Shown here: positions 1-53,905 of the stretch, piece by piece | How the letters are laid out: each line of letters opens with the position of its first letter | How positions within the stretch are numbered: position 1 is the stretch's first letter | Source of the DNA: Elusimicrobiaceae bacterium | GTDB lineage: Bacteria; Elusimicrobiota; Elusimicrobia; Elusimicrobiales; Elusimicrobiaceae | Direction of reading: 5' to 3' | Assembly (NCBI GenBank): GCA_017528825.1 | Contig: JAFXOI010000001.1 | Coordinates: 124,001 to 188,000 of the forward strand | DNA length: 64,000 bases | Notes under the pieces: model-generated | Seen by the model: only the letters and a program-made list of their open reading frames with translations | Database searches by the model: none | Told to the model about the DNA's origin: nothing | Program-made: the position numbers and the translations under genes

Positions 1-218
1 CGCCCTCTAAAACAAACAGCCGTGGTTTGCCGTCACGATTGACGGCAAACACTCGGCACCACACTTCCAAGGGATCAGCTCGGACGTGTAGTGCCTAAAA
101 CGACTGTTTTTGGTGTGAATGGGCTGCCTTTCGACAGCGCCCCCTACGGGATTCCAAAAACAGATAAATTTAAGTAAGCCGGATTAGGGCTTTGTTAACT
201 CTTTTCTCCTGTTACTAC
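1..218 (-). ncRNA. Structured RNA copy A, 3' end cut by window edge
   Basis: Read on the minus strand this is one of three copies of a shared fold (others at 38397-38668 and 51380-51655). An extended -10 (TGG-TAATAT, 225-233) sets the 5' end near 218, and GGAG follows at about 206-209. Pairings seen: a small 5' hairpin (about 176-193); P1, 154-163 with 104-113; a GAAA-capped hairpin at 123-138; P4, 55-68 with 82-95, whose loop reads GAGCTGATCCC; P5, 25-34 with 41-50; and the first arm of a CGGCTGTT terminator stem at 16-22. The terminator and the gene behind it lie left of the window. Family and function are unknown; the strand is inferred from G-U wobbles and from the terminators of the other copies. 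Confidence 0.72.
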
Positions 219-366
219 CCCACTATATTACCAAATTTTATGCATCCTTGTTTTTTACGGATTTTTTCCTATACTACTTAATAGGTTCTACTTACCCCGC
301 GGCAAGGAGGCTTATCAAATTTATCTAATTCTGCTTTTATAACTATTCTTTTCCGTCAATTACGCG

Positions 367-22629: not shown

Positions 22630-23823
22630 TTATAAATCCTTAAAATTATTCGGGTCCATATAGTACGGGTCACAACGAGAAGATGCGCATTTAGGAGCAG
22701 AATCTGGGCAATATGCGCCACAACAACAAGAAGTATCCTCGTAAACATTTTCAGGAATATAATCTCCATATCGTTTACAAGCTCCATTTACGTTTGCATA
22801 ACAAATTGCCCCATTTTTGAAGGTACTTGTAATACAGTTTTGACTTTTGTTTCCTACGCAAATACCGCCGTCATAAACACTTCCATCGCTTCCACAAGGA
22901 CCTTCATGATTACAAATGACAGCTCCCTTTATTCCATTACTATTATGACTACAAGATCTACCATAACCAATAGTTTTACTGCCAACACACATTCCCCCTT
23001 CTTCAATAATAAGATCAGCACAAGGCGTGTAAGAACCCGCTGTTACCCGGCATACTCCGCCGTTTTTAATGGTAGAATGACAACATGCACAATTATTGGT
23101 CTTATAATCTCCAGGGCCTGCTATACATTCTCCTCCATCCTCTACGATCGTGTTATGACACCCATTTGTATCTGCTTGACAAATTTCTTCTTCTCCTATT
23201 GTCTTACTGTTTTGGTCTTGAAACCCACATTGGCCGTCACCCAAATGGTTTGAATCTAATGCATTACACCGAGTTGGGTCATCTTTATAACACTTGGTTT
23301 TACTCGTACTCCAACTGCGGCTCGCATTATCACACGTGGCTTTATCAATAGATTGGTCTAACAAATAACCCGTATAGCCATCAGCCGAAGTTAATTCTTG
23401 CCCTTGCAACAAACCACCGCAAAGTCTGTTGGCTCTCTCATCTCCGGTAGCCGCTTCACAATGTAACTGTCCGGCAAATTTCGGATTATCATCTAAGTAA
23501 CTAGCCAGTCTTACATTGGCTAGTTTGCTATTTGTCACTCTGATTACATTGGGGTCAGAGGTGTTATTGGGTGTAATTAAATTAAATGTTAAATCGTTGT
23601 TCTCCATTGTCACATCCAAATTAGCCATGGTGTCGGTATATCCGTCATTGGACATCTTAAATGCTTCTTCCGCGTCTTTTATCGCTTTAGCTCCCGGGAG
23701 CATTGTACTCCAATGGCTTTTATCCACCGCCCCTTGATACATTGGGATGGCAATGGCAGAAAGAATCCCAATAATCAGAACTACGATTAATAGTTCTATT
23801 AAAGTAAAGGCTTTCTTTGACAT
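22630..23823 (-). CDS. Type IV pilin-like protein with cysteine-rich repeats
   Basis: 397 aa. The prepilin leader MSKK precedes A-FTLIELLIVVLIIGILSAIA, the type IV pilin/pseudopilin helix, with Glu5 of the mature form present. Residues about 20-180 match the paralogue at 37301-38365. The C-terminal 200 residues are Cys/Gly/Asn-rich with loosely repeated units of the form (T/S)-x-F/I-x-x-G-(A/G)-x-C. The start is chosen at the leader, after AAGGAG; an upstream ATG is not supported. Surface or pilus location expected. Its promoter has a T13 spacer (see 23910-23938). Confidence 0.87.
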   Translation of the reverse strand: MSKKAFTLIELLIVVLIIGILSAIAIPMYQGAVDKSHWSTMLPGAKAIKDAEEAFKMSNDGYTDTMANLDVTMENNDLTFNLITPNNTSDPNVIRVTNSKLANVRLASYLDDNPKFAGQLHCEAATGDERANRLCGGLLQGQELTSADGYTGYLLDQSIDKATCDNASRSWSTSKTKCYKDDPTRCNALDSNHLGDGQCGFQDQNSKTIGEEEICQADTNGCHNTIVEDGGECIAGPGDYKTNNCACCHSTIKNGGVCRVTAGSYTPCADLIIEEGGMCVGSKTIGYGRSCSHNSNGIKGAVICNHEGPCGSDGSVYDGGICVGNKSQNCITSTFKNGAICYANVNGACKRYGDYIPENVYEDTSCCCGAYCPDSAPKCASSRCDPYYMDPNNFKDL

Positions 23824-23909
23824 TTTTATTCTCCTTTTAAACAGGCCTAAAACGCCCATAATACAACGTTTAATGACTCAGTGCCTTAAAAACAGCGGCG
23901 TCATAAAAA

Positions 23910-23938
23910 ATGGTAGCAAAAAAAAAAAAACGAGTCAA
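23910..23938 (-). promoter_or_regulatory. Pilin promoter with T13 spacer
   Basis: On the minus strand, TTGACT (23933-23938) and TACCAT (23910-23915) are separated by 17 bases, 13 of which are an unbroken T run (23918-23930). Length changes in the run would alter the spacing, a known way to switch surface-protein promoters on and off. Confidence 0.55.
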
Positions 23939-23953
23939 GCCTTTTCTGATAAT

Positions 23954-24286
23954 ACTTTTTCTTCCCGAAGAAAAAGTATCCAAAAAGACGCTCAGCCAAT
24001 AAGCAAAAAAGAATCTGCAAACGGCTGTTTGATAAACTCACTTTGCTCATACATATCAAACAGACTACCCCGTTTGCAGACTCTTTTTTACTACGCTTCA
24101 AGGCCGATTTATAACAACAAATACCGTTTACAAATTTCGGGGATGATATTATTTAATTGCCCTCCTCTCGTCACCCCGCAGGGTTTCTGTGCGGGGTATG
24201 ACGCCGTTGCAAAACGACCCTATCAAGGCATAAAAAAGCTGTTATACCGAGCGTAAACCCTAGCCCTGTATAACAGCCGTTTTTTT
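23954..24286. repeat. Intergenic cluster of four hairpins
   Basis: This 473-base gap between the pilin and Nudix genes has no credible gene. It holds a perfect 11-bp hairpin (23954-23977), a long two-step hairpin with T6 on one side and A6 on the other (24011-24089), a GC-rich hairpin CGTCACCCCGCA/TGCGGGG-TA-TGACG (24169-24203), and a terminator GCTGTTATAC/GTATAACAGC with flanking A6 and T7 (24232-24286). The last can end the leftward Nudix gene. Its ACAGCCGTTTTTTT end resembles the terminators of the structured RNAs elsewhere in the window, but their other stems are absent. Confidence 0.65.
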
Positions 24287-37300: not shown

Positions 37301-38365
37301 TTACATATTTATGCCATACTGCGTACTTATATTTTGCACTTGTGCCTCTACTTCAGCACAACGAGCTGACGAACAACGATGTTCATTTGGACAGGATGCC
37401 CCACCGCAACAACATGCGTTATCATTATAACTCACACCTGCACAACCATATCTATAATAAGTAGATTCTCCTGCATAACATACAGAGCCATTCGTAAACG
37501 TGCTATCGCATCCTCCATAAAAACTTGTAGTGACACAAATTGCATTATCAAAAGTATTATTTGCACAAGAGCTCTCATTTTTTGTGATACATACGGCTCC
37601 GTTTGCAAAGGAAGAATTTGTACAACCCGCTTTTGCCATGTCCCAACATACTCCCCCATCTTTAAATGAGGAATTATTACAAGAATTATAAATATAACCT
37701 TTACATATACCTCCTTCATTTACCTCGACGTTACTAGATGCTCCATATCCACAAAACGGCGTAGAATTGCCATATATACCATTGGCTTGATAGGGCATAG
37801 CTAATGCTGAACATCTTTCTTGGTCGGTTCTATAACATGTTCCATTTTTTTGCGAAAAGGCACGGCCAACATGATCACAAGTGGCCTTGTCTATAGCTTG
37901 GTCTAAAAGATACGCGGTGTAGCCCTCGGCACTAGTTAAATCTTGGCCTATAAGTAGCTTTCCGCAAAGTTTTTCGGCCCGTTCATCGCCTGTCTTAGCC
38001 TCACAATGCAGTTGCCCGGCAAATATTGGACTGTCGTTAAGGTAACTAGCCAGTCTTACATTAGCAAGCTTACTATTCGTAACCCGTATCACGTTGGGAT
38101 CTGCGGTATTATTGGGCGTTACTAAGGCAAAGGTTAAATCAGTATTATTCATAGTAACATCTAAATTAGCCATATTATCTGTATAAGCACCATTAGTCAT
38201 TTTAATGGCTTCTTCAGCATCTTTAATGGCCTTAGCTCCGGGGAGCATTGTGCTCCAATGGCTTTTATCCACCGCGCCCTGATACATGGGGATTGCAATA
38301 GCTGATAAAATACCAATAATCAGTACGACAACTAGCAATTCTACTAACGTAAATGCTTTGTGCAT
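37301..38365 (-). CDS. Type IV pilin-like protein with cysteine-rich repeats (paralogue)
   Basis: 354 aa. Prepilin leader MHK, then A-FTLVELLVVVLIIGILSA. About 170 residues are near-identical in layout to 22630-23823 (AIPMYQGAVDKSHWSTMLPG). The C-terminus has repeats such as SSFKDGGVCWD, SSFANGAVCITK, NTFDNAICVT, STFTNGSVCYA, roughly every 15-18 residues, then a CCCGGASCP cluster. This looks like a disulphide-rich solenoid. It has AAGGAAA before the ATG and lies 30 bases after the terminator of structured RNA B. Confidence 0.87.
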   Translation of the reverse strand: MHKAFTLVELLVVVLIIGILSAIAIPMYQGAVDKSHWSTMLPGAKAIKDAEEAIKMTNGAYTDNMANLDVTMNNTDLTFALVTPNNTADPNVIRVTNSKLANVRLASYLNDSPIFAGQLHCEAKTGDERAEKLCGKLLIGQDLTSAEGYTAYLLDQAIDKATCDHVGRAFSQKNGTCYRTDQERCSALAMPYQANGIYGNSTPFCGYGASSNVEVNEGGICKGYIYNSCNNSSFKDGGVCWDMAKAGCTNSSFANGAVCITKNESSCANNTFDNAICVTTSFYGGCDSTFTNGSVCYAGESTYYRYGCAGVSYNDNACCCGGASCPNEHRCSSARCAEVEAQVQNISTQYGINM

Positions 38366-38396: not shown

Positions 38397-38668
38397 AAGA
38401 AAACGGCTATTATGCCCAAGCGCGAATCAGTCACCTAGTCATAACAGCCGTAGTTTGCCGCGCCCGAAGGCGTGGCAAACATTCGGTACAACACAACGGG
38501 ATTATAAGTTCCATTGCGTTGTACCTAAAACAGCTGCTTTTGGACTGATTCGTGGCCTTTGGTTTCCCAAAAGCTATCCGTATTCTGCATACGGTTCCAA
38601 AAACAGATTAAAATTTATTCATAAGCGCAGTTTCTTGCGCGTAACTATCTATCCTCCTATAAAGGGAT
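38397..38668 (-). ncRNA. Structured RNA copy B, upstream of pilin gene
   Basis: Minus-strand transcript. -10 TGC-TATAAT (38675-38683); AGGAGG near 38652-38658; 5' hairpin GCGCA/TGCGC; P1 38597-38606 with 38534-38543; P2 CCGTAT/ATACGG; P3 38556-38573 with GAAA loop; P4 38485-38525; P5 GTTTGCC/GGCAAAC (38453-38480); terminator stem 38404-38450 with T-rich tail. The terminator loop segment 38422-38431 pairs with 38544-38553 over 10 bp. It ends 30 bases before the pilin ATG, so it may be a leader with attenuator or a separate RNA. Confidence 0.78.
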
Positions 38669-38699
38669 GTTGGTATTATAGCAAATCCCTATACGATAT

Positions 38700-51298: not shown

Positions 51299-51379
51299 AA
51301 ATGATTTTTTTGGCCTACAAAACACAACCAAACATGGGAATTTATACGCATCTGGGTACAGGTTTGCTAAAATGGAAGT

Positions 51380-51655
51380 ATCACATTAAATTTGCAAAGG
51401 AGATAAAACAGAACAGCCCGAACTGGGCATAAACTTTTTTACTGTTTTTGGGATCCTGCTGGAAGAGTAGGATAGCTATTGGGAAACCAATATCTAAGCT
51501 CACCAAAACAGCCAATTTAAGCATAGACACTGAGAGCTGATCCCTTTCGGTGCTTATGCCGAAAATGCTTCTTGCCGTCTGCAAAGACGGCAAGGGGTTA
51601 CGGCTGTTTATATCCGGGGCTGAGCTTAGACCTGGACGTAATACAGCCGTTTTTA
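51380..51655 (+). ncRNA. Structured RNA copy C, upstream of restriction operon
   Basis: -10 TGC-TAAAAT at 51365-51373; GGAG 51399-51402 with no start codon behind it; 5' hairpin GCCC/GGGC (51416-51428); P1 51442-51451 with 51503-51511; P2 ATCCT/AGGAT (51453-51473); P3 TATTGG-GAAA-CCAATA (51477-51492); P4 51521-51533 with 51547-51559 and loop GAGCTGATCCCTT; P5 51571-51594; terminator 51601-51649 plus T5. The terminator loop 51621-51630 is an exact complement of 51493-51502. It ends 47 bases before the methylase ATG. Confidence 0.8.
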
Positions 51656-51701: not shown

Positions 51702-52358
51702 ATGACGGAACGAAAGGAACAACAAATCAAAAGCGAGAAACGCGTGGCCGACTTTGGCGAAGTGCTCACCGCACGCCGTGAAGTGGAAGCCATGCTGGAC
51801 CTGGTCAAAAATGAATCGGAACGCATAGACAGCCGCTTCTTGGAGCCCGCATGCGGCACGGGGAACTTCCTTACTGCCATATTGGAACGCAAGCTCAAAA
51901 CTTTACGGGCACGCTACCGCACTAAACGGGCCGACTTTGAAGCCCAACTGCTCTCCGCCTTAGGCAGCATCTACGGCATTGACTTATTAGAAGACAACGT
52001 CAAAGAATCCCGCCAACGCCTTTTTGATATGGCCGTACAGTGCTACAAAGATTCCCTGCGTAAGAAACCCGATGAAGCATTTCAAAACATCATCCGCTTT
52101 GTACTAAGTAAGAACATTCTGCAAGGTGATTCATTAAACGGAATAGACAAAATCACGTTCACCCAGTGGACACTGCTCGGCTACCGATTTAATAGGGAAG
52201 AGTACGCTTTCCAAGCATTAAACAATAAACCGGAAGACGGACTGGACTTGTTCGGCACGTCTTCCTTAAACGAAAAACAGCAACCCGTGTACATTCCGCA
52301 AGCTGTTAAACGTTACCCGCCTGTACATTACCGCAAATTATTGGAGGAAACTAAATGA
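51702..52358 (+). CDS. N6-adenine methylase, SAM-binding half
   Basis: 218 aa. RVADFGEVLTARREVEAMLDLV and FLEPACGTGNFLTAIL (motif I) are those of Eco57I/type I-like adenine methylases; YGIDLLEDN is the next SAM contact. The catalytic NPPY motif is absent, though the following gene has its own motif I and NPPY. Probably a subunit or a reduced methylase. ATG 51702 fits the family N-terminus (MTERKEQQ) better than the upstream TTG. Overlaps the next gene by four bases. Confidence 0.78.
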   Translation: MTERKEQQIKSEKRVADFGEVLTARREVEAMLDLVKNESERIDSRFLEPACGTGNFLTAILERKLKTLRARYRTKRADFEAQLLSALGSIYGIDLLEDNVKESRQRLFDMAVQCYKDSLRKKPDEAFQNIIRFVLSKNILQGDSLNGIDKITFTQWTLLGYRFNREEYAFQALNNKPEDGLDLFGTSSLNEKQQPVYIPQAVKRYPPVHYRKLLEETK

Positions 52359-53905
52359 CGTTCTTAAAAGAATTGCACAAGCCGGACATTTTGGACTGCA
52401 TTGCCCACTTGTCTTCCGACGAAGTATTCACACCACCCAAGCTGGTAAATGAAATGCTGGATATGCTTCCGCCCGAACTGTTCCGAAGTACGGAAACAAA
52501 GTTTTTGGATCCTGGTTGCAAATCCGGCGTGTTCCTGCGGGAAATTGCCAAACGCTTGATTGAAGGCGAAAAAGAACTCATTCCCGACCTGGAAAAGCGG
52601 ATCCGGCACATCTTTACAAACCAATTGTACGGGCTGGCTATTACGGAGCTGACAGGGCTTTTGGCACGGCGTTCCACTTACTGTTCCAAGAAAGCAGATG
52701 GGGAATACTCCATTTGTACATTTAGCACACCGGACGGCAACATTGACTATACTCGCACGGAACACGTCTGGGAAAACGGCAAATGCACCTTATGCGGGGC
52801 CAGCCAAAGCCAGTACGACCGTGGCGACATTTTAGAAACCCACGCATACAGTTTTATTCACTGCGACGAAGAACACAACAAAACAGTTTTCAAGAGGTTA
52901 AAAGATATGAAATTTGACGTAATTATCGGCAATCCGCCGTATCAACTAAGTGATGGTGGAGCACAAGCAAGTGCCAGCCCGATTTATCAGTTATTTGTAG
53001 AACAAGCCAAACGACTAAACCCGCGGTATCTAACCATGATTATACCTTCCCGCTGGATGACTGGGGGCAAAGGATTGGATGCTTTCCGAAGCACGATGAT
53101 TCATGATAAACATTTCAAAACATTACACGATTTTGCAGATTCAAATGAGTGTTTCAGAGGGGTAGATATTAAAGGTGGTGTGTGTTATTTCTTGTGGACA
53201 CGCGATTCTGAACAAAAGTGCGACATTTACCGACATGATATAAACGGTGTTAGCCATTCAAAACGCTACTTGGTAGAAGAAGGAGATGACATTTTTATCC
53301 GGTGTAATCAACTTATTCCCATCAAAGATAAAGTCCAAGCCAAACAAGAAGAAAGTTTTATGAGTTTGGTATCAGCCATGAAACCTTATGGACTACGCGG
53401 AGATGTATTTGAACACCCAATCAAATATGACTTGCCAAAAATGGGGTGCAGAAGAATTAAAGACGGATACGAAGTTGTGGGATTATGCCACCTAAGACGA
53501 GAATCACGTTTTATTCCGCCCGATTATCCCATCCCACAACGTAATATGCTCCATGATTATAAAATTTTTATGACACGCAATTATGGATGTGGCGAGATAG
53601 GAGAAGTACCAGCCACGCCAGTCCTGGCCACGCCAGGAATGTTATGCACCGAAACATTCATTCAGATTGGGCCCTTCAAAACCCAAAAGGAAATGGAGAA
53701 CTGTTTTAGTTATATTAAAACCAAATTCTTCCGTTGCATGGTAGGTATTAGAAAACAGGACCAAGGAGCTGGAAGGGCTGTTTATAAATATGTGCCAATG
53801 CAAGATTTTAGCGAACCGTGGACGGATGCCAAGTTATACAAAAAGTACGGACTGACGAAGGACGAAATCAACTTTATAGAGTCCATGATTAAGCCGATGG
53901 AATAG
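52355..53905 (+). CDS. Eco57I-type adenine-N6 DNA methylase
   Basis: 516 aa. Motif I LDPGCKSGVFLREIA, catalytic motif IV FDVIIGNPPYQLSDGG, with a Cys4-like insert between (YCSKKADGEYSIC; GKCTLCGAS) that may bind zinc. The C-terminal half is a specificity region. Translationally coupled to the gene before and ten bases from the helicase. Confidence 0.88.
   Translation: MTFLKELHKPDILDCIAHLSSDEVFTPPKLVNEMLDMLPPELFRSTETKFLDPGCKSGVFLREIAKRLIEGEKELIPDLEKRIRHIFTNQLYGLAITELTGLLARRSTYCSKKADGEYSICTFSTPDGNIDYTRTEHVWENGKCTLCGASQSQYDRGDILETHAYSFIHCDEEHNKTVFKRLKDMKFDVIIGNPPYQLSDGGAQASASPIYQLFVEQAKRLNPRYLTMIIPSRWMTGGKGLDAFRSTMIHDKHFKTLHDFADSNECFRGVDIKGGVCYFLWTRDSEQKCDIYRHDINGVSHSKRYLVEEGDDIFIRCNQLIPIKDKVQAKQEESFMSLVSAMKPYGLRGDVFEHPIKYDLPKMGCRRIKDGYEVVGLCHLRRESRFIPPDYPIPQRNMLHDYKIFMTRNYGCGEIGEVPATPVLATPGMLCTETFIQIGPFKTQKEMENCFSYIKTKFFRCMVGIRKQDQGAGRAVYKYVPMQDFSEPWTDAKLYKKYGLTKDEINFIESMIKPME

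What the first reader, a model, noticed from the sequence alone, without database searches (positions are those of the whole stretch)
38397..38668. A family of three ~270-nt structured RNAs with one fold and diverged sequence
Copies A (minus 1-218, partial), B (minus 38397-38668) and C (plus 51380-51655) share, in order: extended -10 promoter, GGAG, small hairpin, P1 (CTGTTTTTGG with CCAAAA-CAG), P2, P3 capped by GAAA, P4, P5 and, where visible, a rho-independent terminator. Stems change in a compensatory way: P3 is GCTGTC/GGCAGC in A, CTTTTGG/CCAAAGG in B and TATTGG/CCAATA in C, always around GAAA. P4 differs in all three, but its loop keeps GAGCTGATCCC (A, C) or a related AATCCC form (B). 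This pattern is expected of a selected RNA, not of a recent repeat. I do not recognise the family.
Basis: partly seen in the sequence, partly recalled or inferred. Interest (0 to 1): 0.92.

Follow-up and report, generated by a model that had tools for sequence, protein, structure and literature searches.

The report
RNA switches guarding bacterial pilin genes
The three look-alike RNAs belong to an undescribed family of about 46 RNA leaders in this one gut-bacterium genome, most of them directly in front of a pilus-protein gene, whose paired segments can form either a transcription stop or an anti-stop, so each one probably works as an on/off switch for the gene behind it.

Summary
The three window copies belong to a family of about 46 copies in this 1.53-Mb genome. 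The family occurs in 94 of 341 genomes of the phylum, in two families of Elusimicrobiota. Nothing in Rfam 15 matches. Covariation is overwhelming: 44 of 65 pairs change on both sides and stay paired. In the own genome 36 of 40 complete copies lie just upstream of a type IV pilin gene. Elsewhere they also precede glycosyltransferase, secreted-protein and DNA-methylase genes. I read it as a cis-acting transcription attenuator. P1's 3' strand, a conserved toehold and a hypervariable 10-nt segment can pair with the terminator's 5' arm and loop, forming an antiterminator that excludes P1 and the terminator. Two extra layers are likely: an SD/AUG hairpin whose loop complements P1's 5' strand, seen only with pilins that have the leader, and palindromic P4 loops that switch symmetrically, as expected of kissing homodimers. 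The input signal is unknown. No transcript data were available.

The parts
38675..38685 (-). copy B: extended -10 promoter element (TTTGCTATAAT)
   Evidence: TGnTAnnnT found upstream in 31 of 40 copies, a -10 within one mismatch in all 40
38597..38606 (-). copy B: P1 5' strand CTGTTTTTGG (99% pairwise identity over 40 copies although its partner varies A/G)
38578..38594 (-). copy B: hairpin P2
38556..38573 (-). copy B: hairpin P3 with GAAA loop
38543..38552 (-). copy B: ATa, hypervariable antiterminator segment CGAATCAGTC
   Evidence: all 10 pairs of this helix show changes on both sides
38531..38543 (-). copy B: P1 3' strand CCAAAAGCAG plus toehold CTG; pairs with P1 5' strand or with T5
38485..38525 (-). 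copy B: hairpin P4; apical loop 38500-38510 AACTTATAATC with palindrome TTATAA
38453..38480 (-). copy B: hairpin P5
38439..38450 (-). copy B: T5, terminator 5' arm (CGGCTGTTATGA), also antiterminator 3' arm
38423..38432 (-). copy B: ATb in the terminator loop (GACTGATTCG), perfect complement of ATa
38400..38413 (-). copy B: T3, terminator 3' arm and U run
37301..38365 (-). 354-aa type IV pilin gene controlled by copy B (SD at about 38373, ATG 38363-38365)
   Evidence: PF07963 over the curated cut-off
51363..51373 (+). copy C: -10 element (TTTGCTAAAAT)
51442..51654 (+). copy C: element from P1 to terminator; P1 51442-51451/51503-51511, ATa 51493-51502, P4 51519-51560, P5 51568-51597, T5 51601-51613, ATb 51621-51630, T3 51641-51654
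   Evidence: (E 5e-25)
51702..52355 (+). gene downstream of copy C: DNA methyltransferase-like protein, followed by an Eco57I-type methylase (52355-53905)
   Evidence: MmeI_Mtase match just below its cut-off; Eco57I E 8e-38
1..235 (-). copy A, cut by the window edge: -10 region 223-235, P1 154-163/104-113, P3 123-138, ATa 115-122, P4 55-95, P5 25-50, T5 13-22; ATb and T3 lie outside the window
   Evidence: downstream gene is a DUF4422 protein

Best explanation
This is a cis-acting leader RNA, a transcription attenuator, that ends in a conditional terminator directly in front of a gene, most often a type IV pilin. Shown from sequence: an element of about 215 nt (about 270 with its promoter region) has two mutually exclusive folds. 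In the OFF fold P1 closes (CUGUUUUUGG with CCAAAAACAG) and T5:T3 forms the terminator. In the ON fold P1's 3' strand, the YCG toehold and the variable ATa segment pair with T5 and ATb, a nested antiterminator of about 25 bp that opens P1 and blocks the terminator. Inferred: the antiterminator forms by toehold strand displacement as T5 emerges, and read-through expresses the gene. Inferred for most pilin copies of Elusimicrobiaceae, but not for A, B or C: the freed P1 5' strand then pairs with its second complement in the loop of a hairpin that hides the SD or AUG, which also raises translation. Inferred: palindromic P4 loops let two leaders kiss, a possible input. What tips the balance in the cell is unknown.
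For: Position: in 35 of 40 complete copies a pilin start lies on the same strand 2-202 nt after the U run, mostly 31-45 nt, and a 36th has its pilin further down behind an inserted repeat, so there is little room for a second promoter. Antiterminator: ATa:ATb is unique in each of 40 copies and matches itself (mean 9.7 bp, against 4.2 for other copies; 9.9 against 4.2 in 91 relatives of both families). All 10 of its pairs have double changes. The toehold pairs in 40/40, 40/40 and 37/40 copies although it belongs to no other helix. The duplex energy is -30.6 kcal/mol with its own partner and -20.0 with others. Before T3 is made, antiterminator-forced folds average -84.9 kcal/mol, equal to the MFE (-85.0), while P1-forced folds average -77.4. 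Conservation follows the number of partners: P1 5' 0.99, T5 0.99, P1 3' 0.88, ATa 0.33. Translation layer: SD-region folding z -2.8 and a P1-complementary loop (at least 9 of 10) in 25 of 40 copies; 39 pilins without leader give z 0.05 and 3 of 39.
Against: No RNA-seq, probing or reporter data. In full-length RNA the P1+terminator fold is the ground state by a mean 7 kcal/mol (0 to 14.3), so antitermination must be kinetic or assisted. The ATa:ATb pairing could also form as a pseudoknot in the terminated RNA; covariation alone does not tell the two apart, and the higher score of the antiterminator model only shows that this helix carries more information. The translation layer is absent from copies A, B and C, from non-pilin genes and from the second family. 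No ligand or factor is known.
Confidence: 0.78

Rival explanations
1. A free-standing structured RNA (about 220-270 nt) released by its own strong terminator and acting in trans, with ATa:ATb as a pseudoknot that docks the terminator hairpin onto the P1 multiloop and P4 loops as dimer contacts; pilin genes merely sit behind it.
For: Own promoter and terminator; P1+terminator is the ground state of the full RNA; palindromic loops as in homo-oligomeric RNAs; all copies end in the same terminator.
Against: 36 of 40 copies lie in front of pilins in the same orientation; the SD hairpin exists only where the leader exists; the conserved toehold and the nested co-linear pairing are explained only by an antiterminator.
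Confidence: 0.14
2. A metabolite or ion riboswitch: the P1-P2-P3 domain is an aptamer whose ligand stabilises P1 and so the terminator.
For: P1 closes a multihelix domain and competes with the antiterminator, the standard arrangement of an OFF riboswitch (general knowledge).
Against: Across both families almost no unpaired position in P1-P3 is conserved beyond the AA after P1; P2 and P3 vary in length and sequence; the regulated genes share no metabolic pathway. This would be a kind of input to the attenuator rather than a full alternative.
Confidence: 0.2
3. A repeat or mobile element (MITE-like) that happens to be palindromic and spreads with pilin genes.
For: Up to about 46 copies here and at least 73 in a relative; contig ends C15 and C16 break inside it.
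Against: Copies are diverged, with compensatory changes in 44 of 65 pairs; fixed orientation relative to genes; no transposase or target-site evidence was found; viral contigs hold only chance P1 hairpins.
Confidence: 0.02
4. A recombination substrate: conserved leaders serve as homology or cut sites for pilin gene conversion (antigenic variation).
For: About 115 pilin N-termini in one genome and shared leader plus N-terminal sequence.
Against: Gene conversion would homogenise the leaders, yet they are only 70-78% identical and each ATa:ATb is private; selection acts on RNA pairing; non-pilin genes carry the same leader.
Confidence: 0.04

Closest known systems
Terminator/antiterminator leader attenuators and transcriptional riboswitch expression platforms
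   Same: Leader with mutually exclusive terminator and antiterminator; the antiterminator segment varies freely in sequence.
   Different: No Rfam match; one conserved family repeated in front of tens of paralogous pilin genes; little conserved unpaired sequence; a second exchange partner for P1 in the SD hairpin.
T-box leaders
   Same: Similar size, many copies per genome, one variable apical loop class per copy, terminator/antiterminator choice.
   Different: No T-box match in Rfam scans; the regulated genes are not aminoacyl-tRNA synthetases; the variable loops are palindromes, not specifier codons.
OLE, ROOL and GOLLD RNAs (Nature 2025, PMC12286853)
   Same: Loops that switch between palindromes; that paper uses the same kind of switch (GGCC, GAUC, AGCU in OLE L9.3) as evidence for symmetric intermolecular kissing.
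   Different: Those are large RNAs whose study concerns homo-oligomers; here the palindromic loop sits in a gene leader of about 215 nt with 1 to at least 73 copies per genome. No sequence or Rfam similarity.
Riboswitches reported upstream of pilin or adhesin genes (cyclic-dinucleotide classes, from general knowledge)
   Same: A leader RNA controlling surface appendages.
   Different: No cyclic-dinucleotide riboswitch match in Rfam, and a different architecture.

Membership tests
Any Rfam 15 family | score at or above the family's gathering threshold | tested here: not met
   Window: only two tRNAs; copies B and C: nothing credible down to E 10; copies of the second family: only tRNAs, chance hits
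T-box leader | match to the T-box model (conserved antiterminator T-box sequence) | tested here: not met
   the antiterminator here is YCG plus the P1 3' strand
T-box leader | regulates aminoacyl-tRNA synthetase or amino-acid genes | tested here: not met
   pilin, glycosyltransferase, TPR, DNA methylase genes
Transcription attenuator (as a kind) | intrinsic terminator between promoter and gene | tested here: met
Transcription attenuator (as a kind) | conserved antiterminator mutually exclusive with the terminator | tested here: met
   (pairing shown by covariation; formation in the cell not shown)
Transcription attenuator (as a kind) | regulated read-through measured | not testable with these tools
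   no RNA data available
Metabolite riboswitch | conserved aptamer with many invariant unpaired residues | tested here: not met
   consensus over 96 relatives
Metabolite riboswitch | ligand binding | not testable with these tools
   needs in-line probing or reporters
Homo-oligomeric RNA (works like, not member of, OLE/ROOL/GOLLD) | apical loops self-complementary, with symmetric covariation | tested here: met
   15 of 31 distinct loops hold a 6-nt palindrome against 1.7 expected, maximum 6 in 2000 shuffles; 125 of 137 RNAs hold a palindrome of 4 or 6 nt
Homo-oligomeric RNA (works like, not member of, OLE/ROOL/GOLLD) | dimer observed | not testable with these tools
   needs native gel, mass photometry or cryo-EM
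OMEGA/HEARO or raiA RNA | Rfam match to these models | tested here: not met

The most novel reading that the evidence does not exclude
A new class of RNA-only regulators in which tens of paralogous surface-protein genes per genome each carry a private antiterminator lock, transcription and translation are coupled by moving one invariant strand (P1) from the terminator fold to the start-codon hairpin, and leaders sense one another through class-specific palindromic kissing loops, so that the population of leader RNAs helps decide which pilins are made.
Probability: 0.22. Interest if true: 0.95.

Novelty: new variant of a known kind. Interest (0 to 1): 0.83.

Why it matters
It would be one of the most copy-rich structured leader families for its genome size (about 46 copies here, at least 73 in a 1.7-Mb relative). 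It gives a handle on how bacteria that carry 50 to 150 pilin genes choose which to express. It is also a natural data set for RNA switching, because one scaffold recurs with tens of independent antiterminator sequences in a single genome. If the palindromic loops do dimerise, it joins cis-regulation with RNA-RNA homodimerisation.

Tried and rejected
Rfam at gathering and permissive thresholds, on copies of both families: no family. Viral contigs: 47 hits to the P1 pattern are P1-only hairpins of at most 24 bits. Pseudoknot as the sole reading of ATa:ATb: weakened when constrained folding showed it nests with P1':T5. 'Address tag' selection for distinct ATa sequences: ATa identity between copies is 0.33 against 0.27 expected from composition, so drift under complementarity suffices. 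Second-layer hairpin as a general feature: rejected for non-pilin copies and for the second family. Literature searches found no description of this RNA or of pilin attenuators in Elusimicrobiota; only open-licence papers are held. Elusimicrobium minutum under the accession I tried was not in the collections. Failed calls with wrong coordinates or strand: 70, 71, 73.

Full report
What is there. The three copies read by the first stage are present as described. Copy B used as a DNA query against its own genome (1.53 Mb, 41 contigs; the window is contig 1, 124001-188000) returns about 40 further copies at 70-78% identity. A covariance model built from 40 complete copies (R1) finds 43 strong copies (two truncated at the ends of contigs 15 and 16), two clear ones (C19:14517, C22:6586) and up to three weaker ones. 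A second model (R2) finds the same set. No Rfam family matches at gathering or permissive thresholds, for own-genome copies or for distant relatives.

Is it a selected RNA? Yes. On the 40-copy alignment 93.5% of cells in the named structure are standard pairs, against 38-48% with partners slid by 1-3 columns. Forty-four of 65 pairs have changes on both sides that keep the pair, and no shuffle of 500 reaches any of the five measures (RNAalifold agrees).

The 10 nt just 5' of P1's 3' strand (ATa) are complementary to 10 nt inside the terminator loop (ATb). Each of 40 copies has its own sequence. The longest perfect match to its own partner averages 9.7 bp, against 4.2 bp to partners of other copies, and 9.9 against 4.2 in 91 relatives. 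All ten pairs show double changes, most with all four Watson-Crick types.

How it is arranged. ATa - P1' (CCAAAAACAG) - YCG lies before P4 and P5; T5 (CGGCUGUU) - UUGGG - ATb lies after them. ATa:ATb is therefore nested with P1':T5 and forms one long antiterminator enclosing P4 and P5. It excludes P1 (P1 5' with P1') and the terminator (T5 with T3). The YCG after P1' belongs to no helix of the terminator fold, yet it can pair with T5 in 40/40, 40/40 and 37/40 copies, with C or U facing G. In transcripts stopped just before T3, antiterminator-forced folds average -84.9 kcal/mol, the same as the unconstrained minimum (-85.0), while P1-forced folds average -77.4. Once T3 is present the P1+terminator fold is lower by a mean of 7.0 kcal/mol. 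The RNA thus has the energetics of a kinetic switch. Sequence conservation tracks the number of alternative partners: P1 5' 0.99, T5 0.99, P1' 0.88, ATa 0.33, where 0.27 is expected from composition. The hypervariability is thus explained by drift under complementarity and needs no addressing function. A covariance model with the antiterminator structure scores 62 of 67 relatives higher than the terminator-state model, by a mean of 9.1 bits. That shows how informative the helix is, not which fold prevails.

What it sits in front of. The own genome has 115 matches to the pilin N-terminal model PF07963, 113 of them over the curated cut-off. In 35 of 40 complete copies a pilin start follows the U run on the same strand, usually within 31-45 nt. 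In one further copy (L020, contig 5 at 83086) the pilin (C5:82795) comes after an inserted repeat. The other four precede a lipoprotein, a HAD-like protein, a DUF4422 protein (copy A) and a DNA methylase gene (copy C). Among 80 downstream proteins in relatives 41 match PF07963; the rest include glycosyltransferases, polysaccharide enzymes, TPR proteins and DNA methylases.

A second layer in pilin copies. Between the U run and the start codon most pilin copies form a hairpin that hides the SD or AUG, built from different sequences in different copies (for example TTTGCGTC..TTTTCC with GGAGAATCGTATGCAAA, and TGTTGGGTTTC with GAAACACAACA). The mean folding z is -2.8. Its loop region is complementary to P1's 5' strand at 9 or 10 of 10 positions in 25 of 40 copies, against 9% in shuffles. 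Thirty-nine pilin genes without the leader show neither (z 0.05; 3 of 39). Occupying that loop raises predicted SD accessibility from 0.44 to 0.74 (23 copies). In relatives the feature is seen with Elusimicrobiaceae pilins (13 of 30, 4.5 expected) but not with other genes or in the second family. It is also absent from A, B and C.

Palindromic loops. The P4 apical loop is one of a small set: TAATTA, TCATGA, TTATAA, TTCGAA, TTGCAA, TAGCTA, or the 4-nt GATC, AGCT, GGCC, TGCA. Fifteen of 31 distinct loops hold a 6-nt palindrome, against 1.7 in shuffles (maximum 6 of 2000 trials). Overall 125 of 137 RNAs hold a palindrome of 4 or 6 nt. Changes are symmetric about the centre, where neighbouring bases cannot pair within one molecule. 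The cryo-EM study of OLE, ROOL and GOLLD uses this same argument, with GGCC/GAUC/AGCU switching in OLE L9.3, to support symmetric intermolecular contacts (PMC12286853). Dimerisation is therefore likely here, but it has not been shown.

Distribution. Ninety-four of 341 genomes of the phylum have a match, in two families (six candidates scored per genome, so counts are lower bounds). An exact-pattern scan of 84,980 species genomes returns 85 stretches: 83 titled as Elusimicrobiota (Elusimicrobiaceae, Endomicrobia, Candidatus Ruminimicrobiellum and relatives) and two titled only 'uncultured bacterium'. Pilin counts do not track it simply: G022 has 125 pilins and 4 leaders.

What I conclude. Shown: a conserved RNA family with two mutually exclusive pairing schemes and a fixed place in front of genes. 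Inferred: transcription attenuation (0.78), a coupled translation switch in pilin copies (about 0.5), homodimerisation through P4 (about 0.6). Unknown: the input and the direction of control in the cell. The few conserved unpaired positions argue against a classical metabolite aptamer.

Noticed in passing
own genome G000 and relatives: 115 pilin N-terminal matches in a 1.53-Mb genome; relatives have up to at least 150.
   Followed up: partly
window 23823-23910 (-), also L250, L253, L254, L273, L274: A different conserved 5' region (CCGCTGTTTTCAAGGCACT...ATTACGGGCGTTTTAAGATGATTAAACAGGAGAATAAAAATG) precedes another pilin subfamily; CTGTTT and AAACAG next to the SD could pair. Possibly a second leader type.
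   Followed up: no
window 24230-24285 (-): An isolated hairpin ACGGCTGTTATAC...GTATAACAGCTTTTTT resembling the leader's terminator arms without the rest of the element.
   Followed up: no
L009, L020, L030, L035, between leader and pilin ORF: Palindromic repeats (CATTCCCGA..., ATGCTGAG...CTCAGCAT) are inserted at the 5' ends of several pilin genes and would add N-terminal extensions.
   Followed up: no
window 37301-38365 (-): The pilin behind copy B has a cysteine-rich C-terminal part made of repeated modules such as NSSFKDGGVC / NSSFANGAVC.
   Followed up: no
window 51702-53905 (+): The genes behind copy C look like an MmeI/Eco57I-type methylase in two overlapping reading frames, possibly a split gene.
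   Followed up: no
G000 contigs C15:1-135 and C16:1-135: Both contigs end inside identical leader sequence with different upstream flanks, so the assembly breaks at the repeats and the copy number may be underestimated.
   Followed up: no
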